From assembly GCF_900098745.1 (NCBI RefSeq), contig NZ_FQTT01000010.1, forward strand, positions 200,557 to 264,556: DNA of 64,000 bases. The letters run 5' to 3'. Below the pieces are notes generated by a model. It saw nothing but the letters and a program-made list of their open reading frames with translations. It was not told where the DNA came from and did not search any database. Shown in pieces: positions 50,283 through 63,568 of this stretch; position 1 is the stretch's first letter, and each line of letters starts with the position of its first letter. Position numbers and translations under genes: made by a program. The stretch comes from Actinomyces glycerinitolerans. GTDB lineage: Bacteria; Actinomycetota; Actinomycetes; Actinomycetales; Actinomycetaceae.

Positions 50283-51635
50283 ATGAGCGCAACGGCCATT
50301 CATGTCACCCTCGTCCACGAGGGCGGCGCGGTTGACGTTGCGGCCGCACCGGGCACGAGCGTCGACGAACTGTTGGGATCCCAACGCATTGTTCCGGACG
50401 CTCGTCCGGCGGCCATCGCCACGCCGTCGGGCCTTCCGATCGAGACCGGTGGGTTGATCGGACAGGACGTGGCCGAGGGATCGGTGTTGGTGATCACCGA
50501 TGCAGTGGACACTAACGGCCGGGCGACGACGCATCCGCGTCCAGCGTCCTGGGCGGCAGTACGTCCCCCGTTCTGGCTGGCGGAGGCGACGGCGGTTCTG
50601 CTAGCCGCGCTGATGCTCGCCTTCGTATTTGCCGGGATCCTCACCGGAACATCTGTGCTGTCGCTACCCGTCCGCGTGACGGCCGCTGTGATGTTGCTCG
50701 CGCTGCTAGCGGCGCTCGGGCTGCCACAACGCGCATCCTGTACGCCTACATCGGCGGCACTGTTCACTTTGTCACTTCCGTTGCTGGGTGCGAGCATGAG
50801 TGCCCTGCTAGTTCCTCCCACCAACCCGGACTGGGCGCTGCTGGCGACCCTCGTTGCGCTTTGGGGCGCAGCGGCTACGGCCATGGCACTGTGGCTGCGC
50901 CACAGGGGCCCAAGCGACGCCGTCGCCGCGGCGACCTGGGCCGCTGCGGCGACGGTGGTGACGGTCGGCGCTGCGCTGGGGATCTCGGCCACAACGCTGG
51001 CGCTGTTGACGGCCGCGCTGGCGGCGCTCGGCGGTCTGCTGATTTCAGGGGCCGCCTTGGCCTCGGTGCCGGATCGACAGCTCCTGGACATGACCGGGCA
51101 GAGGGCTGCGGGGCAGTCGGTACGTGCTCCGACGACGGCTCCCCCGGTTCAGGTCACCCGCGCCCGCACCCGGCGCACCGTTGCCGACGCCGAAGCCGTC
51201 TCTGTCGCACTTGAGATCGCCTTGGGCGCTCTGGTCGCAGCGTGCTTACCCGCTGTCACCGGAGTAGCGGTAGGCCACGGAATCGAGGCCTGGGGGGCAC
51301 GGGCAGAGATCATCTTTGCGCTGGCACTGCTCACGCTTCGGCCGCGCACCGCCCGCTCGCACGCTGCCCGCATTATTCCGCGGATGTTCGCATGCATCGC
51401 CATTTGTCTCAGCGCGCTGGTGGCGGCAGCGACGCAAGCGGTTCAACCGTGGGTCGCGGCGGGCGCGGTGCTGGCGATCGGGGGCGCCTTGAGCCTGGTC
51501 GGCGCATTCACCCTGCTCAGACGATCGGCGTGGTGGGGACGCCTAGGCGACGTGTTCGAACGGCTTTCTGCCTTCCTGATACTCCCCACCGCGGTGGTCG
51601 CAGCCGGACTGATAGAAGTGATGAGGCAACTGTGA
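50283..51635 (+). CDS. eccD: EccD-like T7SS membrane protein, copy 1
   Basis: The 450-residue protein has an N-terminal ubiquitin-like domain (about residues 5-80: IHVTLVHEGGAVDVAAAPGT, GLIGQDVAEGSVLVITDAV) and about ten to eleven hydrophobic helices, the layout of EccD, which forms the T7SS membrane channel complex. A basic loop (QVTRARTRRTVADAEAV) separates the two halves. The stop overlaps the GTG of the FHA gene by 4 nt. A second EccD-like gene lies at 54391. Two EccD-like proteins in one locus is unusual; this one is more Ala-rich. Confidence 0.8.
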   Translation: MSATAIHVTLVHEGGAVDVAAAPGTSVDELLGSQRIVPDARPAAIATPSGLPIETGGLIGQDVAEGSVLVITDAVDTNGRATTHPRPASWAAVRPPFWLAEATAVLLAALMLAFVFAGILTGTSVLSLPVRVTAAVMLLALLAALGLPQRASCTPTSAALFTLSLPLLGASMSALLVPPTNPDWALLATLVALWGAAATAMALWLRHRGPSDAVAAATWAAAATVVTVGAALGISATTLALLTAALAALGGLLISGAALASVPDRQLLDMTGQRAAGQSVRAPTTAPPVQVTRARTRRTVADAEAVSVALEIALGALVAACLPAVTGVAVGHGIEAWGARAEIIFALALLTLRPRTARSHAARIIPRMFACIAICLSALVAAATQAVQPWVAAGAVLAIGGALSLVGAFTLLRRSAWWGRLGDVFERLSAFLILPTAVVAAGLIEVMRQL

Positions 51636-53985: not shown

Positions 53986-54390
53986 GGTCTGTGACCTTTC
54001 TCAGGTGTGGTGCAGAGTCTGGCGCCGAGCAGAGGACCGCGAGCGCCGTTCCGCCCTCATCCGCTGTGACCGCGGTAACCACCGCGACACATCCCGGAGG
54101 AGGTTCGGTAACGGACCAAGACTAACCCCTCCACACGTTCCGTTGTCTACGGTTTTAACCAATCTCGCACTCAAACACCGCCACCTGCGGTGGGTAGAAA
54201 TACCCATCCCGGCAGAACGGCGGCATTAACGCCGCCGTGACACGGAGGCCCAGATGTGCCACGATGGCACAGTCCTCCCCGTGGCAGGCGGGAGCCGCGT
54301 CCTCCCCGCGCGGCGGCATCGGATGACGTGTCACCGGCGCCGACCTCTTCCGACTTGCCCGCAGGTCGTTCCCGTCGCAGGAGAGTGCCT
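53986..54390. promoter_or_regulatory. Divergent region between esx pair and eccD copy 2
   Basis: 405-nt spacer without a credible gene. Two neighbouring hairpins: TGGGTA-gaaa-TACCCA (54191-54206) and ACGGCGGC-attaac-GCCGCCGT (54217-54238). They may belong to the eccD leader or terminate upstream transcription. Promoters for both sides must be here. Confidence 0.5.
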
Positions 54391-55734: not shown

Positions 55735-57063
55735 GTGGCTTCGAATAAGGACATCCTGGATGCGCAGCGGTTCAACCGCCGTCGCCTCGTCACCGTATTC
55801 GTCGCCGGCGCCCCCGGGGGCCGCGAGCTTGAGCCCCGCAGCGTGACACGTCCGCTAATCGGTGGTATCGCCTTGTCACTGGTAATCCTGCTGGTGTCTT
55901 GGGTCTCCGGACTGTTCATCAGTTCCCTGCCGGACGGATGGGAGAACAACACCTTGGTGGTGGTCAACGGCGAGGGTGCCCGCTACCTGACGATCAACGG
56001 CCGATTGCGGCCGGTCACCAACCTGGCCAGCGCCATGCTGCTGTCCGAAACCGGTTCGTTCCAGGAAGTCTCCGTTGACGCCTCCGTCCTCGACGGCATT
56101 GAGCGCGGCAGCAAGGTGGGGATCGACGACGCCCCGGAGCACCTGCCCGAGGCCGACCGGCTGGTGGCGGACGGATGGTCGGCCTGCTCGACGGCGGACG
56201 GGACCACCATGACCTACCTGGGCTCCTCCCCCGCCGGCTTGAGCAGCGTGCAGCATGCGCTGGTGTCGGTCGGCGAGACCACCTATCTGGTGGCCGACGG
56301 CGTCAGCCACGAGATCCCTGCCGATCAGCTGAGTACCACGCTGCTGGCGCTGGGGCTGGAATCGGAGCCCGTCGTCGCCGTCGACGCCACCTGGCTCAAC
56401 CTATTCGCGCGTGGCAGCACGCTGGAACCGTTCTCCGTCCCCGGTGCGGGCACCCCCGTGAACGGCCTGTCCGCGGCGATAACCGACCCGGTCGCGGGCA
56501 TGCTGCTGTCGGTTACCGACGCTTCGGGTGCCGAGCGGTACTACGTCGTGCAGCAGGACGGCAGCCTGAGCCGCCTCAGTGAGGTGGCGGTGACCATGTA
56601 CCAACTCGGCGAGGGAGCGGACACTCCGATCCAGGAGGTCGGGGTCTCCGATCTGACGCGTGTATCCACCGGCGGTGGCGCGCCGTCGGACTGGCCCGAG
56701 TCTCTGGACACCGCTCTTTCGGAAGACGACTCCCTATGTGCCGTGCTCGGCGCGAGTTCCACCGGCGATGCGTCACAGACCGCTCTCGCCTCTGCCGACG
56801 CAATCACCACGGGCGGAGTGAGCGTTGCCGGCGGCACGGGGGCACTGGTGCGTTCGGTGTCCGGCGGCACCATGGGACCGGTCTTCCTGATCACCGATGC
56901 GGGCCGTGCTTGGGGCCTGGGCGGGGACCCGAGCGACACGGTGCAGCGGCTGGGGTACACGGAGGAGCAGATCGCCACGGTCCCCTCACCGTGGCTGGCC
57001 CTGTTCCCCACAGGCACTGAGCTCTCCCGAGAAGCGGTCTGGGAGGGGGTCACCGAGGAATGA
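55735..57063 (+). CDS. eccB: T7SS membrane protein EccB
   Basis: The 442-residue protein has a short cytoplasmic N-terminus (DILDAQRFNRRRLVTVFVAG), one transmembrane helix (about residues 42-63), and a large extracytoplasmic domain made of repeats, with YLTINGRLRPVTNLASAMLL and YLVADGVSHEIPADQLSTTL as the characteristic EccB repeat motifs. It starts at a GTG immediately after the eccD stop and overlaps mycP by 4 nt, so eccD-eccB-mycP is one coupled operon. EccB is a core part of the ESX membrane complex. Confidence 0.93.
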   Translation: MASNKDILDAQRFNRRRLVTVFVAGAPGGRELEPRSVTRPLIGGIALSLVILLVSWVSGLFISSLPDGWENNTLVVVNGEGARYLTINGRLRPVTNLASAMLLSETGSFQEVSVDASVLDGIERGSKVGIDDAPEHLPEADRLVADGWSACSTADGTTMTYLGSSPAGLSSVQHALVSVGETTYLVADGVSHEIPADQLSTTLLALGLESEPVVAVDATWLNLFARGSTLEPFSVPGAGTPVNGLSAAITDPVAGMLLSVTDASGAERYYVVQQDGSLSRLSEVAVTMYQLGEGADTPIQEVGVSDLTRVSTGGGAPSDWPESLDTALSEDDSLCAVLGASSTGDASQTALASADAITTGGVSVAGGTGALVRSVSGGTMGPVFLITDAGRAWGLGGDPSDTVQRLGYTEEQIATVPSPWLALFPTGTELSREAVWEGVTEE

Positions 57064-58634
57064 TCCGCACCGGCACTTCCGGCAGGTTCACCGATCTGCG
57101 GCACTCGCACCGGCGCAGGCGCCTGGGCGCAGTGCTCGCCCTGTCCTCAATCGTCGCAGTCGGCTTAGCGGCTGGTTTTCCGGCCGGCGGCATGGCGTCC
57201 GCGGATGAGACGCCCGCGACGGTTCAGACCGACGGCTTCGTAGCCCGCAACACGATTCCCCGCACCGAGAAAACCGCGGAGCCGCAGCCGCAGCCCACCC
57301 CGCAGGCACCAGAAGAGGAGCCGGTCGCCCAGGAGACCACGGAGCCGGAGCCCACGCCAGAGGCCACCGAAGCGGTCGAGCCGACGCCGGACCCCACGCA
57401 CACCACCGCCCCAACCCCGACCACCGCGACCGAGGTCGCCGACTGCGAACGCGGACAAACGGCGCTGGTGCAGACCCCGCCGTCGGTGATCGCACAGATC
57501 GGTGCGGAGCAGGCGTGGACCGTGTCCACCGGGCAGGGCGTGGTCGTCGCCGTCGTCGACTCCGGTGTGGACGCAACCAACCCGCACCTGACCCACGCGC
57601 TCGTCGACGGCGTGGACCTGACCGGAACCGGAGAGGCGACCACGGACGTGGACGGCCTGGGCACCGCCGTCGCCGGGGTGATCAGCGGGCGCGCCGTCTC
57701 CGGGTCAGGACTGACCGGGCTGGCACACGACGCCGCGATCATGCCGGTGCGGGTGCTGACGGACACCTCGGAGGCCGCCGTTGAGGCCGGCACGGGCCCA
57801 CGCGCCGACCAGACCGCGTCGGGCATCGTCTGGGCCGCGGACAACGGAGCCACGATCATCGTGGTGCCGCGCGCGCTGAGCGAGGGCTCCGCAGAGCTGG
57901 CCGCGGCGGTGGAGCATGCAACCGCAGCCGGGGCGCTCGTCGTTGCCTCCACCGGCGACCAGCCGCAGGAGTCATCCGCCGCCAATGCTTCCGCGCAGCC
58001 CACTGCGGATGCCATCGGCACCGCCGGCACGGAAGCTGCCGAGGCGGACTCGACGACCCGTTATCCCGCCGCCTATGAGGGTGTCCTCGGTGTCACCGCC
58101 CTGGACTCCGCGGGGGCGGTTTCCGACGCCGTGCTGCACGGCGACGACGTCGACCTCGCCGTCCCGGCGCAGTCGGTGCTGACCGCATTCTTCGGCGACG
58201 GCGACTGCGTGGTCTCTCAGCAGGCTCCGTCCACGGCCCTGGCCACCGGATACGCGGGCGCCGCGGCGGCCCTGGTGGCGGAGGCTCATGGGACGGAGTC
58301 TCCGGCGGACTGGGCGTACCGACTCACCGTCACCGCCCTGCGCACCTCCCCGGCGGAGCGCAACGCCAACACCGGTTGGGGGCTGGTGGCGCCCTACGCG
58401 GCCATCGAGTTCGTCAACGATGGCACGGCACTCGGACCCGCCAATCCGCGCGGGAGTACCACAAGGGCAACCCCGGCGGTGGCCATGGCCACGCCCCCGT
58501 CCCCCGACCCGGCGCCGGCTCGACGGCGGCGGCTGGCGGCGAGCGTCGGCGCAGTGGGCACCATCGCGCTGATATTGCCCCTGGTGGCGTCCAAGGCGGG
58601 AGGTAGAGCACCGCGAGCCGCGGCACGCAAGTGA
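57060..58634 (+). CDS. mycP: Mycosin-like subtilase MycP with substituted catalytic residues
   Basis: The 524-residue protein has a signal peptide (about residues 20-48), a Pro/Glu/Thr-rich stretch (70-125), a subtilisin-like domain (140-430) and a C-terminal transmembrane anchor (about 490-513) followed by a basic tail. The family is clear (QTPPSVIAQIGAEQAW, GQGVVVAVVDSGVD with Asp167), but the His motif reads DGLGT (Leu200 for His) instead of DGHGT, and the Ser motif reads STALATGY (Ala393 for Ser) instead of GTSxAxxY. The oxyanion Asn region reads STGDQ. It is probably an inactive scaffold. MycP is known to stabilise the ESX membrane complex independently of its protease activity. Confidence 0.9.
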   Translation: MIRTGTSGRFTDLRHSHRRRRLGAVLALSSIVAVGLAAGFPAGGMASADETPATVQTDGFVARNTIPRTEKTAEPQPQPTPQAPEEEPVAQETTEPEPTPEATEAVEPTPDPTHTTAPTPTTATEVADCERGQTALVQTPPSVIAQIGAEQAWTVSTGQGVVVAVVDSGVDATNPHLTHALVDGVDLTGTGEATTDVDGLGTAVAGVISGRAVSGSGLTGLAHDAAIMPVRVLTDTSEAAVEAGTGPRADQTASGIVWAADNGATIIVVPRALSEGSAELAAAVEHATAAGALVVASTGDQPQESSAANASAQPTADAIGTAGTEAAEADSTTRYPAAYEGVLGVTALDSAGAVSDAVLHGDDVDLAVPAQSVLTAFFGDGDCVVSQQAPSTALATGYAGAAAALVAEAHGTESPADWAYRLTVTALRTSPAERNANTGWGLVAPYAAIEFVNDGTALGPANPRGSTTRATPAVAMATPPSPDPAPARRRRLAASVGAVGTIALILPLVASKAGGRAPRAAARK

Positions 58635-58718: not shown

Positions 58719-59231
58719 GTGGCCAACGAGATCGATGACGCCGCGTCGCGGGCGCATGCGCATATTGATGGCTGGGTGCGTCAGGCGCAGGAGCGTGCGG
58801 AGGCCTCCCAGCGTCTGGCGAAGCAGGTGGAGTCTTTGCGCGAGACCGAGGTGAGCCGGGATCGGGCTATCAGCGTGACGGTGGATGCGGCCGGCAGGCT
58901 GGTCGATTTGAAGCTGCGCGAGCCGGCAATGGACTTCACGCCCGGCGATCTGGCCGCGGCGATCATGCGGGCGGTCCAGAAGGCGTCCGCGCGTGCGGGC
59001 GAGAAGACGGCCCAAATGGCCGCGGATGTGTGGGGTGAGGACTCGGCGGTTGCACAGCGAGTCCGGCAGGCCTACACCGGCGGCGAGGACGAGGGGGCTT
59101 CGCAGTCGCAGTCGGGGTCGGGCCGGCGGCCTGGGACCGCCCCGCGGGGGGCGGGCCTGATCGACCCGACCGGTTCGTTAGGAAGCTTGCGGCAGGGCGA
59201 TGACGGGCGTGGCTTCAGGGGCGGTTGGTGA
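58719..59231 (+). CDS. YbaB/EbfC-like protein in T7SS locus
   Basis: The 170-residue protein has an N-terminal alpha-helical segment (AHIDGWVRQAQERAEASQRL), then a beta region ISVTVDAAGRLVDLKLREPA and a helix PGDLAAAIMRAVQKASARAG, which is the YbaB/EbfC fold. A flexible Gly/Ser/Arg tail follows. YbaB-like proteins (for example EspL) are common T7SS accessories. The start is a GTG at 58719 after GAGGAGGAG. The stop overlaps the next ATG by 1 nt. It may act as a chaperone-like adaptor; DNA binding is also possible. Confidence 0.82.
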   Translation: MANEIDDAASRAHAHIDGWVRQAQERAEASQRLAKQVESLRETEVSRDRAISVTVDAAGRLVDLKLREPAMDFTPGDLAAAIMRAVQKASARAGEKTAQMAADVWGEDSAVAQRVRQAYTGGEDEGASQSQSGSGRRPGTAPRGAGLIDPTGSLGSLRQGDDGRGFRGGW

Positions 59232-59612: not shown

Positions 59613-62600
59613 GTGACTGTTGCTAACCCGCTGGTTGCCGCGCAACAGGAGTCGGAGTCGTCATTTTGGGCGGGTACCGGTGTTGGCGAGGACATCTCGG
59701 ATTTGAGCCAGGCCATCGGCGAGGGTTCGTGGGTGCAGGGGAGCCTGGCGGGTGTGGGTCTGGCCGGAGACGTGCTCTTCACCGTCACCAACCCGATCGC
59801 CGCCGGAGTCAGCATCGTCGTCGGCTGGATCATTGAGCATATCTATCCGCTGGATGAGATGCTGGAGCAGCTCACCGGTGACGCGGACGCGGTGATAGCC
59901 GGGTCGCAGACCTGGACGAACATCTCCAACGCTTACACCCAGCAGGCCACGAGCCTGAACGACTACCTCACCGCGGACATGGCCGACCAGGCCGGGCAGA
60001 CCGCGGACGCGTGGAGAACCCGCGCGGGCAAGCTGGCCGGCGGTATGAATGCCATGTCGGCTGCGGCGGCGAACATCGCCAAGGGATTAGAGATCTCCGC
60101 GGCGATCGTGCAGTTCGTCCACGACATGGTGCGCGACGCCATCTCCGAGGCGATCGGCATGTTCTTCGAGGCGGCCGCAGAGGAGATCTTCTCCCTCGGC
60201 CTGGGTACGCCCGCGGTGGTGGCACAGATCGGCACCTGGGTGGCGGACAAGGTCAGCATGCTGGCCTCCAAGGCCAAGGACCTGGTCAACTCCTTCGAGG
60301 CGCTGTCCGAGCTGCTGAAGAAGATCGAGCCGGGCGTCACCAAGCTCATGAACGGCCTGAAGAAGCTCGACCTGTCCGACTGGGCCGAGAGCAAGGGCAC
60401 CCAGGTGGGCCGCGACATCAAGAACCATATGAGCGGCTCCACCCCCAAGCACCACGCCACCACCCTGACCGCAGCCCACACCACCAGCAGCACTTCGGGT
60501 GGCGGAGCCACCAACGCCTCAACCACAACAAACAGCAGCAGCCACTCCACCACCAGTTCCGCCGGCGGCGGCCACAGCACCACCAACACCAGCAGTTCCG
60601 GCGGCGCGGGTAGCCCAGGCAGCGGCTCCGGCGGGTCTGGTACCAGCTACCACGGCATCGACCCCATCCACGGCGACACCACGGGTACAACGTCCTCGTC
60701 TTCAGCTCACAGCTCTACGAGTTCCTCGGCAGGCGCGACGCACACGTCCTCGTCGTCCCCAGCAGCATCGACGTCCTCGACCCCGGCGTCCGCGAGCATG
60801 GCTGATGCCGCTGGTGGTAGCCACACCCGGGCCGGCACCACCACCCCGCAGGCCGACACCCCCGCCACCACCCCGGCGGTCCCGACGACCGATGCCAGCT
60901 ACCACGGCATCGACCCCATCCATGGCGACACCACCAGCACCCCCTCCGCCCACAACACCACACACGCCGACACCACGCGCGCCGACGCCGGAAGTGGCGC
61001 CGACTCCCCGCGTGCAGGCAGCAGTGGCCCGGAGGGCACTCACGCCAGCGGCCCCGAGGCGGACACCGGCCGGACCGAGGCCGGTGCCCCTGACGCCGGG
61101 TCCAGCCGCACAAACGACACCGACACCGGACGCGCCGACTCTGGTAGTGCTCCGGCCGAGGCCGACGGTACCCACACCGGTGACGGCGCCGACGCGGACA
61201 GCTCTCGGCCCGCACAACACGACACCGAGTCTGCCGACCGTGATGCCCAAACCACGCCCGCACGCACCGACGCCGACCAGCCCGACCCCACCGCCCGCGA
61301 CGGGTCCAGCCCGGAGACCGGACAGGACACCGGCCGCTCCGAGCGCCCGGGCCAGCCCACGGGTGAGGGTGCCGGCCCGCACTCCTCGCGCACCGGCAGT
61401 CCCGATGCCGACACCCCGGACGCCAACAACCCGCACTCCGAGCGCGCCCCCGAGACTGACCAGCCCGACACCCAACACGCCAACGACACCGGTGACGGCA
61501 AGACTGGCACCGACAGCGAGCCCGGGAACACCAACCCCAACAACACAAGCACCGACACTCACGGCCGGTCCGACACAGACACCGACACCCACGGCCGGTC
61601 CGATGCTGACGCCGACCCGGGCAGCAACCGGCCCGCCGACCACGACCCGCAGCAGCATCAACCCGATGAGCACGGCAAACAGACTCCCGACGAGCACCCC
61701 AAGGATCCAGAATCGCCGGAGCCCGAGCACCCCAAGGGCCAGGAGCCCGACCCCGAGCGCCCCAAGGGCCAGGAACCCGAATCCGTGTCTGCTCGCAGGG
61801 ACCCGGAAGACAACAACTCCCACTCGAACGCCGCAGCAGCCGAGGCCACAACCCCACACACCAAAACCGACGACACACCCGACCCCACCGGCAACCACAA
61901 GGACACACCCGACACCGACACCACATCCAACCACTCAAACAACGACGGGGATGCCAGCTCCCACGATGCACACGATAGCGAGCCTCCCTCAGACTCCGAC
62001 GGACACGTCCACTTCAACGAAAACGATGTTCCGACACCGCCACAGGAGACTTTTGACACTTCCCGTTACGCGTACAACGATCCAGAGGTTGCCAGGTGGG
62101 CGGATGAGACCTCCGCAGCCACCGGGCTCTCCAGGGACGGAGTCATCGGCACCTATGACTACACGACAAATAACGGGTACAGCACAATGAATCCAGCACT
62201 GCGAGGATCACCCGACGCCCCGCTTACTCCCGAGGTCCAGGCGCGTATCGACAATACGCTCAAGGGCATGGACGAATTGCCCCCCGTTCCAGGGACAACC
62301 TACCGCGGAACCAATCTCCCAGACGACGTTTACCACTCACTTAAGGACGGAGCAAAAGAATACGTCGACCAAGGATTCCTGAGCTCATCGAAGGAGGGCA
62401 ACATAGCCGACACCTTCAAGGGCAACAGCAATAATGCCGTCGTCTTCACCATCGAAGGGCACAGCGGAGTGGACGTCAATCCGTTCTCGGCCCACAAGGG
62501 CGAGGCGGAAATCCTCTTCCGGCCAGGCACCACGTTCAAAGTGACCAAAGCTGAGCTGGGCGCCGATGGTATACTAAGAGTAGAGATGACGGAGGTGTAA
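59613..62600 (+). CDS. T7SS effector with C-terminal ADP-ribosyltransferase domain
   Basis: The 995-residue protein has an N-terminal helical T7SS-type domain (about residues 1-270, with helices such as NAYTQQATSLNDYLTADMA, AWRTRAGKLAGG and hydrophobic stretches). A very long Ser/Thr/Gly/Asp/Pro linker (about 275-790) follows, with a repeated block SYHGIDPIHGDTT. The C-terminus (about 800-995) is an R-S-E class ADP-ribosyltransferase: Arg898 in TYRGTN, the STS-like FLSSSK (Ser924-926), and the catalytic ExE as GEAEILFRPGT (Glu964, Glu966). The ATG or GTG start is at 59613 after CTGGAGG. Likely an exported toxin with ADP-ribosylating activity on an unknown target. The gene after it may give immunity. 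Confidence 0.88.
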   Translation: MTVANPLVAAQQESESSFWAGTGVGEDISDLSQAIGEGSWVQGSLAGVGLAGDVLFTVTNPIAAGVSIVVGWIIEHIYPLDEMLEQLTGDADAVIAGSQTWTNISNAYTQQATSLNDYLTADMADQAGQTADAWRTRAGKLAGGMNAMSAAAANIAKGLEISAAIVQFVHDMVRDAISEAIGMFFEAAAEEIFSLGLGTPAVVAQIGTWVADKVSMLASKAKDLVNSFEALSELLKKIEPGVTKLMNGLKKLDLSDWAESKGTQVGRDIKNHMSGSTPKHHATTLTAAHTTSSTSGGGATNASTTTNSSSHSTTSSAGGGHSTTNTSSSGGAGSPGSGSGGSGTSYHGIDPIHGDTTGTTSSSSAHSSTSSSAGATHTSSSSPAASTSSTPASASMADAAGGSHTRAGTTTPQADTPATTPAVPTTDASYHGIDPIHGDTTSTPSAHNTTHADTTRADAGSGADSPRAGSSGPEGTHASGPEADTGRTEAGAPDAGSSRTNDTDTGRADSGSAPAEADGTHTGDGADADSSRPAQHDTESADRDAQTTPARTDADQPDPTARDGSSPETGQDTGRSERPGQPTGEGAGPHSSRTGSPDADTPDANNPHSERAPETDQPDTQHANDTGDGKTGTDSEPGNTNPNNTSTDTHGRSDTDTDTHGRSDADADPGSNRPADHDPQQHQPDEHGKQTPDEHPKDPESPEPEHPKGQEPDPERPKGQEPESVSARRDPEDNNSHSNAAAAEATTPHTKTDDTPDPTGNHKDTPDTDTTSNHSNNDGDASSHDAHDSEPPSDSDGHVHFNENDVPTPPQETFDTSRYAYNDPEVARWADETSAATGLSRDGVIGTYDYTTNNGYSTMNPALRGSPDAPLTPEVQARIDNTLKGMDELPPVPGTTYRGTNLPDDVYHSLKDGAKEYVDQGFLSSSKEGNIADTFKGNSNNAVVFTIEGHSGVDVNPFSAHKGEAEILFRPGTTFKVTKAELGADGILRVEMTEV
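60645..60934 (+). repeat. 38-bp direct repeat inside the effector linker
   Basis: Two 38-bp copies (60645-60682 and 60897-60934) encode SYHGIDPIHGDTT and differ at one base. They mark an internal duplication in the linker. Confidence 0.75.
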
Positions 62601-62602
62601 GC

Positions 62603-63568
62603 ATGTTTGACCTGATTGGTGATGATGGGGTGCGTCGTCCGTTCACCGGCGATATCCGTGACCTCCGCCCAGGCGTCGTGCAACACCGTTTGCGTATTGA
62701 TCAGGAGGAGGCCACGCGTCTGGGGCTGGGGCAGATCCCCGATGATCTTGAGGACCAGTATTGGGACCGTCGCTGGTACCCCACCTGCCCTGAGGACGGC
62801 ACCATCGACTACGACTGTTTAACCAAAGACGAGTTCTTTGAACGCGACGCGGAGAATCTTCGCCGCAACCGGCTGCGCCACGCACAGTTGCATTACACGG
62901 TCACCGAGGACACACGCGGCAGGACCCGTGTACGCCAGGTCCCGCCGAAAAGGCCCCGCTGGGCGGATGACCCGACGGGGCTGAAGATGCTCCCGCCCAC
63001 CTGCAGCTTCCGGTTGCGTCGGGGCTTTCTGACCAGCATCCGCCTCGACGCCAACCAGCCTGAGCCCGACGTAAACCAGTGGTATGACCGGCTTAACCGT
63101 CAGGAACAGGATGCCTGGATTGTGGGACTGTTCCGTACTGACGCTCCTGAAGGCCAGACCACCTTGGTGTTGGAGTACTACGGGCAGGCATGGGCGGCGG
63201 CCCGCACCGACGGCATCCCCTGGCCCACCGACCTGAACGCCAGTGAACTCAGCATTCCGACGCTGTGGCTGCCCGTGACCCTGACACCGCTGCCCACCAT
63301 CACCAACGACCCGGGCAGCCCAGTATCCATCCCCACATCCGCCGAGCCCGTCGCGGCCCAAGTCGCCACCGACCACGCCTTGTTCGGCCCCTGGTGGAGT
63401 GATGGAGACCCGGTCCTGCCGTACCGGCCCCAGCCATGGATCAAGCCGGCCCCCAACCGTGAACACTACCGACAAGCACTGGGCCACAAAGCCAAGCTCT
63501 CCTACCGGAAGGCACAAGAGCAAAGGGAACAGGAGATGCACCGCAACCAGGAGGACACCAGTCAATGA
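62603..63568 (+). CDS. Unknown protein after the ART effector (candidate immunity)
   Basis: The 321-residue soluble protein (MFDLIGDDGVRRPFTGDIRD) has no signal peptide, no transmembrane helix and no recognised domain. It is Trp-, Pro- and Arg-rich with an even distribution. It begins 2 nt after the ART effector stop and overlaps the next ATG by 4 nt, so the three genes are co-translated. This position is typical of an immunity protein. It is longer than most immunity proteins, and an adaptor or accessory role is also possible. Confidence 0.72.
   Translation: MFDLIGDDGVRRPFTGDIRDLRPGVVQHRLRIDQEEATRLGLGQIPDDLEDQYWDRRWYPTCPEDGTIDYDCLTKDEFFERDAENLRRNRLRHAQLHYTVTEDTRGRTRVRQVPPKRPRWADDPTGLKMLPPTCSFRLRRGFLTSIRLDANQPEPDVNQWYDRLNRQEQDAWIVGLFRTDAPEGQTTLVLEYYGQAWAAARTDGIPWPTDLNASELSIPTLWLPVTLTPLPTITNDPGSPVSIPTSAEPVAAQVATDHALFGPWWSDGDPVLPYRPQPWIKPAPNREHYRQALGHKAKLSYRKAQEQREQEMHRNQEDTSQ

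What the first reader, a model, noticed from the sequence alone, without database searches (positions are those of the whole stretch)
57060..58634. Mycosin-like protein with catalytic His and Ser replaced
Within a clear subtilase/MycP context (eccD-eccB-mycP operon, DSGVD intact), the His motif is DGLGT (Leu200) and the Ser motif is STALATGY (Ala393 on the ungapped alignment anchored by the Tyr and ALV). The oxyanion region is also changed. Mycosins with one changed residue are studied experimentally as mutants, but a natural ESX locus with a doubly dead mycosin would mean the structural role alone is kept.
Basis: partly seen in the sequence, partly recalled or inferred. Interest (0 to 1): 0.8.

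Follow-up and report, generated by a model that had tools for sequence, protein, structure and literature searches.

The report
Dead protease capping a secretion machine
An Actinomyces genome carries, in its type VII protein-secretion operon, a mycosin protease whose catalytic histidine, oxyanion asparagine and catalytic serine are all replaced while the fold is predicted to be intact, so it likely serves only as a structural cap of the machine; most relatives in its genus lack active-site residues too, and the family tree suggests that this loss happened repeatedly.

Summary
The gene at 57060-58634 (+) is the mycosin (MycP) of an actinobacterial type VII secretion locus. Asp167 is kept, but His200 is Leu, the oxyanion Asn300 is Asp and Ser393 is Ala. 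It is not an error: two further species of the genus (75 and 79% identical) share all three changes, and the domain is under purifying selection (dN/dS 0.14-0.15). It is the only S8 match in its genome. The subtilisin fold is predicted intact. In the genus, 13 of 49 genomes have EccB, the same 13 have this mycosin, and 1 of the 13 keeps D, H, N and S. In the family, 14 of 48 EccB-linked mycosins lack a triad residue. One tree needs at least 7 changes for loss of His or Ser. In four dead mycosins of two other lineages, the only columns lost in all four, out of 84 constrained ones, are six in or next to the active site. Best reading: a pseudoprotease keeping the known complex-stabilising role; that role is inferred. 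Against universality: six genomes of one genus have EccB but no recognisable mycosin beside it.

The parts
57060..58634 (+). mycP: catalytically dead mycosin, 524 aa
   Evidence: only Peptidase_S8 match in the genome
57558..57560 (+). Asp167 codon GAC, catalytic Asp kept (DSGVD)
57657..57659 (+). codon CTG, Leu200 at the catalytic His position (DGLGT)
57873..57875 (+). codon GCG, Ala272 where 98% of the intact rows have Ser; aligns with the subtilisin S1-pocket loop (loop name recalled)
57957..57959 (+). codon GAC, Asp300 at the oxyanion Asn position (STGDQ)
58236..58238 (+). codon GCC, Ala393 at the catalytic Ser position (STALATGY)
57444..57446 (+). Cys129; with Cys383 the only two cysteines; in all intact rows and, gaps aside, in the Actinomyces rows; probable disulfide (inferred)
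58206..58208 (+). Cys383, partner of Cys129 (inferred)
57111..57173 (+). predicted N-terminal helix 18-38 (low confidence), signal peptide or anchor (inferred)
57210..57434 (+). Pro/Glu/Thr-rich low-confidence linker, residues 51-125
58512..58598 (+). predicted C-terminal helix 485-513, membrane anchor (inferred)
55735..57063 (+). eccB, overlaps the mycP start
   Evidence: TIGR03919 188.7 bits
54424..55734 (+). eccD (ORF opens at 54256; start uncertain)
   Evidence: TIGR03920 96.2 bits
46002..50534 (-). eccC ATPase ORF (true start probably lower)
   Evidence: TIGR03924 851.4 and TIGR03925 816.1 bits
53309..53599 (-). WXG100 protein (esx), 96 aa
   Evidence: PF06013 53.8 bits
53653..53985 (-). 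WXG100 protein (esx), 110 aa
   Evidence: PF06013 48.0 bits
50283..51635 (+). second, divergent EccD-like protein
   Evidence: PF19053 23.5 bits, below its cut-off of 30; a similar protein in 13 of 13 genus loci

Best explanation
This is the mycosin of an Actinomyces type VII secretion system in which the catalytic His, the oxyanion Asn and the catalytic Ser are replaced, so it is predicted to be a pseudoprotease that likely works only as the structural cap holding the EccB ring of the secretion complex together. Shown: the substitutions, their sharing by close relatives, a changed active site in 12 of 13 mycosins of the genus, purifying selection on the domain, and linkage to eccB in all 13. 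Computed: several separate origins on the trees, and an intact subtilisin fold in the predicted structure. Inferred from experiments on other mycosins: the three-fold cap over an EccB chamber (ESX-5 structure) and the independence of secretion from catalysis (active-site mutants of MycP1 and MycP5). On this reading proteolysis is an accessory function that was lost when no substrate needed cutting, and selection now keeps the scaffold.
Against: No assembly or secretion was tested. Six genomes of another genus of the family (g3) have an EccB match but no mycosin beside it, so the cap is not indispensable everywhere. Over the whole gene mycP changes faster than its partners: dN/dS 0.24-0.28 in the window's group against 0.10-0.14 for eccB and about 0.12 for eccC, though like eccD (0.23-0.29). 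The DQDA and SQ groups show weaker constraint even in the domain (0.25-0.45), which would also fit partial decay. Four constrained columns away from the active site (147, 368, 370, 434) changed in the Actinomyces clade, and the window copy itself keeps the usual residues at 297 and 396. The active-site column set for the Fisher test was drawn up after the losses were seen, and three of the four rows form one clade, so the p-values are descriptive. The mycosin contacts with EccB seen in ESX-5 were not mapped here.
Confidence: 0.8

Rival explanations
1. The old active site was remodelled into a new non-catalytic binding or gating site facing the secretion chamber, so the protein does more than hold the complex together.
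For: An acidic residue replaces the oxyanion Asn in 4 of the 5 groups that lost the His (DLDA/DQDA; P0075, P0104 and P0105; P0087; g13 with Glu). In ESX-5 the mycosin active sites face the chamber (PMC8131196, passages).
Against: The residues differ between dead groups (Leu, Gln, Val, Gly, Ser for His; Ala, Thr, Phe, Val, Leu, Gly for Ser), which looks like relaxed constraint. The SQ group has no acidic residue there. A bulky residue in the groove of MycP1 did not block secretion (PMC5082899, passages).
Confidence: 0.12
2. Sequencing error or a decaying pseudogene.
For: Several catalytic positions are changed at once; the whole gene changes faster than eccB and eccC.
Against: Two further species carry the same residues, with synonymous codon differences at positions 200 and 393; open frame, intact gene order, dN/dS 0.14-0.15 in the domain.
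Confidence: 0.02
3. Catalysis persists through residues from other loops, a moved His and Ser.
For: His179 is in all 4 DLDA rows and in none of the 91 intact rows compared.
Against: By alignment it sits just after the NPHL stretch, away from the catalytic motifs. No new His, Ser or Cys in residues 129-465 is shared by the two dead sister groups. The oxyanion Asn and the S1-loop position 272 have changed too. Distances in a model were not measured.
Confidence: 0.03
4. The mycosin keeps only a structural role because another, non-S8 protease does the cutting.
For: Redundancy between proteases was proposed for MycP5 (PMC5082899, passages).
Against: No other S8 match was found in this genome; I know of no substrate needing cleavage here. 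Non-S8 proteases were not searched.
Confidence: 0.05

Closest known systems
Mycosins MycP1, MycP3 and MycP5 of mycobacterial ESX systems
   Same: Subtilisin fold and a place next to eccB/eccD; profile and fold matches. N-terminal extension and C-terminal membrane helix as described for MycP5 (PMC8131196, passages).
   Different: Those have the Asp-His-Ser triad (PMC5156307, passage); here His, oxyanion Asn and Ser are gone by nature.
Laboratory active-site mutants MycP1 S354A and MycP5 S461A (van Winden 2016, PMC5082899, passages)
   Same: Protease-dead (MycP5: predicted dead) mycosin in a working secretion system.
   Different: Engineered, one residue changed; here several positions, fixed in nature in several species.
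CspC pseudoprotease of Clostridioides difficile (PMC6636752, search listing with start of abstract only)
   Same: A protease homologue without activity that has another function (its subtilisin-like family is recalled).
   Different: Germination signalling, not a secretion complex.

Membership tests
T7SS mycosin (MycP) | Match to the mycosin family model | tested here: inconclusive
   TIGR03921 196.6 bits, E 6.3e-58, but under the curated cut-off of 278.75; so are all matches in the genus and family scans and intact relative P0054 (234.6)
T7SS mycosin (MycP) | Subtilisin fold like MycP1 and MycP3 | tested here: met
T7SS mycosin (MycP) | Encoded with eccB, eccC, eccD and WXG100 genes | tested here: met
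   eccA and eccE were not searched
T7SS mycosin (MycP) | Asp-His-Ser triad and oxyanion Asn | tested here: not met
   D kept; H->L, N->D, S->A. It is therefore filed as a pseudo-mycosin, not as an active mycosin protease
T7SS mycosin (MycP) | C-terminal transmembrane anchor | tested here: inconclusive
   predicted helix 485-513 only
T7SS mycosin (MycP) | Stabilises the EccB/EccC/EccD complex | not testable with these tools
   needs a deletion and complex purification
S8 pseudoproteases | S8 fold without a working triad, kept by selection | tested here: met
   fold (predicted), residues, dN/dS; absence of activity itself is not measured

The most novel reading that the evidence does not exclude
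Mycosins of actinomycete type VII secretion systems have repeatedly, at least seven times on our tree, turned from protease into pseudoprotease while staying locked in the secretion operon, so nature has separated the scaffold from the enzyme; in most of the lineages that lost the His an acidic residue took the oxyanion position, which may mark a new non-catalytic site facing the secretion chamber.
Probability: 0.5. Interest if true: 0.78.

Novelty: new variant of a known kind. Interest (0 to 1): 0.7.

Why it matters
Why mycosins keep a protease activity that secretion does not need is an open question in type VII secretion (the commentary PMC5156307, passages, asks for work on the role of the protease domain). 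Natural, selected, protease-dead mycosins would answer half of it: over evolutionary time the scaffold function appears sufficient. They also give matched living and dead mycosins in one bacterial family, with which the purpose of cleavage can be looked for by asking which substrates disappear when catalysis does. I found no report of naturally dead mycosins in eight full-text searches; these cover open-licence papers only, and I read passages of three papers and otherwise only the listings.

Tried and rejected
Sequencing error or pseudogene: rejected by relatives and domain dN/dS. A second mycosin in the genome: one Peptidase_S8 match only. Moved catalytic residues: no candidate conserved in both dead sister groups; model coordinates were not in the Python box, so the triad could not be superposed by distance. 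Distant dN/dS pairs are saturated and were not used; one search lists only pairs with dN under 0.25 and dS 0.1-1.0, drops pairs with identical values, and the pair L079/L080 is not in it. The named-genome scan gave one locus, Actinomyces ruminicola (records very near the window's genome may be left out there). The class scan found mycosins in 150 of 296 genomes, but only 30 best-scoring loci were read, so it gives no frequency. The order scan used a dead protein as query and a strict cut-off (21 of 297 genomes), so it gives none either. The protein search listed 120 of 408 hits, ranked by likeness to a dead query, so its share of dead rows is inflated. Rows dropped: four family-scan genomes (G047, G138, G140, G195) were set aside as non-mycosin subtilases because they score low with my profile and have no EccB match, and the pair L097/L098 (G140, G138) was left out of the intact dN/dS range for that reason; nine loci identical in the kept columns to other rows were dropped from the first tree. 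Both trees are quick searches with SH-aLRT support alone and warn of long branches; no test of single origin was run. Loci L162, L164 and L165 were fetched and not examined. Mapping the MycP5 interface Trp523 onto this protein was not done.

Full report
Observation. Pfam finds Peptidase_S8 at residues 158-441 and NCBIfam finds T7SS_mycosin at 196.6 bits. The score is below the curated cut-off, but so is every match in the genus and family scans and that of an intact relative (P0054, 234.6 bits), so the shortfall is a trait of the lineage rather than of the lost residues. Alignment to 120 proteins and 14 loci, phmmer alignments to thermitase and other subtilisins and a profile alignment to MycP1 agree: Asp167 kept, His200 -> Leu, Asn300 -> Asp, Ser393 -> Ala.

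Locus. The neighbourhood reads eccC (-), a second EccD-like gene, an FHA protein, two WXG100 genes (-), eccD, eccB, mycP, a YbaB-like gene, and a 995-aa protein ending in an ADP-ribosyltransferase domain. Matches to eccC, the EccD-like gene, both esx genes, eccD, eccB and mycP are found in 13 of 13 genus loci in this order (eccC is cut by the region end in L090 and slightly in L082); the FHA protein matches in 11 of 13. The genome is 3.7 Mb in 19 contigs, 100% complete by the tool's estimate, and holds one Peptidase_S8 match, this one. The nearest named genome is Actinomyces ruminicola DSM 27982, 77% identical; its contig has the same length as that of G027 (178,610 bases), so G027 is very probably that species.

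Is it an error? No. Two further genomes of the genus (G027, G024; 79 and 75% identical over the match) carry L, D and A at the same positions with partly different codons. Within residues 135-460, dN/dS (Nei-Gojobori) is 0.150 and 0.139 for the two pairs with the window copy. It is 0.099 and 0.139 for two DHAS/DHAA pairs, 0.050 for the g8 pair (DHDG), 0.253-0.452 for three DQDA pairs and 0.417 for the SQ pair. Intact mycosin pairs range from 0.030 to 0.332. So the window's protein is under clear purifying selection, while the DQDA and SQ groups are looser. Over the whole gene, linker included, the window's group has mycP at 0.24-0.28, eccD at 0.23-0.29, eccB at 0.10-0.14 and eccC at about 0.12: mycP is less constrained than eccB and eccC.

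How common is it? In the genus, 13 of 49 genomes match EccB, and the same 13 match this mycosin. Their states at D/H/N/S are: one intact (G033, in a different clade of the tree); three DLDA; three DQDA; two DHAA; one DHAS; one DHTS; one SQNS; one SQQS. A triad residue is lost in 10 of 13, and the oxyanion Asn alone in 2 of 13. In the family, 54 of 213 genomes match EccB at E 1e-15. Of these, 48 have a mycosin (E up to 1e-45) within about 600 bases of it (coordinates): 29 intact, 14 with a triad residue lost, 5 with only the Asn changed. The triad losses outside the genus are in g8 (Ser -> Gly, two genomes) and g13 (His -> Ser and Ser -> Leu, two genomes). The remaining 6 EccB genomes, all g3, have no such mycosin. 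By profile, five of the six have a partial match in a large protein (open frames of 1,557-2,035 aa), which lies 19-24 kb from eccB in the three where both are on one contig; G052 has a second weak match and G056 has none. In the one g3 locus read in full, eccB is followed by an unrelated gene. Of the 120 listed database proteins, 29 have a change at one of the four positions and 18 at a triad residue. Four dead ones (P0075, P0087, P0104, P0105) lie outside the Actinomyces clade. Of the class loci read, 30 of 30 are intact. Of the order loci read, 19 of 20 are intact, two of them (G164, G168) already in the family count; the 20th is G031, also counted.

How many origins? A tree of 125 rows with the motif columns left out puts the Actinomyces dead forms in one clade of 27 rows (SH-aLRT 100), P0075/P0104/P0105 in another (99), and P0087 as sister of an intact protein (97); it needs at least 4 changes for His, 5 for Ser, 6 for Asn and 1 for Asp. 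A second tree of 90 rows, with the active-site columns masked and family loci added, needs at least 5 for His, 6 for Ser, 9 for Asn, 1 for Asp, and 7 for 'His or Ser lost'. Ser changed at least three times inside the Actinomyces clade alone. Parsimony does not give direction; loss is inferred because the intact state is widespread. Both are quick trees with some long branches.

Mechanism. Established elsewhere: MycP1 is needed for ESX-1 secretion while its catalytic Ser is not; MycP5 S461A restores ESX-5 secretion; loss of the mycosin destabilises the membrane complex (PMC5082899, passages; commentary PMC5156307, passages). In ESX-5 a MycP5 trimer caps a chamber of EccB5 dimers with the active sites facing in, and complexes without it are disordered in the periplasmic part (PMC8131196, passages). 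Inference: the window's protein does the capping without cutting. MycP1 mutants oversecrete, MycP5 mutants do not, so I make no claim on secretion levels here.

Comparison and novelty. It is a mycosin by descent, fold and place, and not an active mycosin protease, because the triad test fails. A protein of known kind in a new natural state, with several origins, is a new variant of a known kind. I found no paper on naturally dead mycosins, with the limit that most subscription papers are not held and that beyond three papers I saw listings only.

Noticed in passing
50283-51635 (+): A second, divergent EccD-like protein: EccD membrane-domain match of 23.5 bits (below the cut-off), and an N-terminal stretch that by eye resembles a ubiquitin-like domain (no family match). 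Similar proteins in 13 of 13 genus loci, so the complex may hold two different EccD chains.
   Followed up: partly
59613-62600 (+) and 62603-63568 (+): 995-aa protein whose C-terminus matches ADP-ribosyltransferase families (PF03496 37.9 bits), followed by a 321-aa gene without family match; a likely secreted toxin-like substrate of the system and a candidate partner.
   Followed up: partly
P0042, P0061, P0066, P0067, P0084, P0111, P0119: Single proteins of 842-906 aa that carry both EccB and S8 domains (7 of 120 listed), all seven with D, H, N and S intact: natural EccB-MycP fusions.
   Followed up: partly
L161 (read), L163 (ORF list only); genomes G051-G056 (g3): EccB match without a mycosin beside it; in L161 eccB, eccD and eccC lie together and the gene after eccB is unrelated: a possible end stage in which the mycosin is gone. 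Five of the six have a partial S8-like match in a large protein elsewhere.
   Followed up: partly
mycosin position 300 (window 57957-57959) and relatives: The oxyanion Asn became Asp or Glu in 4 of 5 groups that lost the catalytic His; the meaning of the repeated acidic change is unknown.
   Followed up: no
58719-59231 (+): YbaB/EbfC-like gene (PF02575 41.2 bits) directly after mycP; a match lies after mycP in 7 of 13 genus loci. An odd neighbour for a secretion operon.
   Followed up: no
G000:C5:245281-247098, C18:19448-20032, C14:30797-31474: Three further EccC-like ATPase genes in the genome, below the EccC cut-off; as the genome has one S8 match only, other type VII-like systems without a mycosin may be present.
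   Followed up: no
L056 (G127): Mycosin next to eccB whose profile match spans one TGA codon; not examined further.
   Followed up: no
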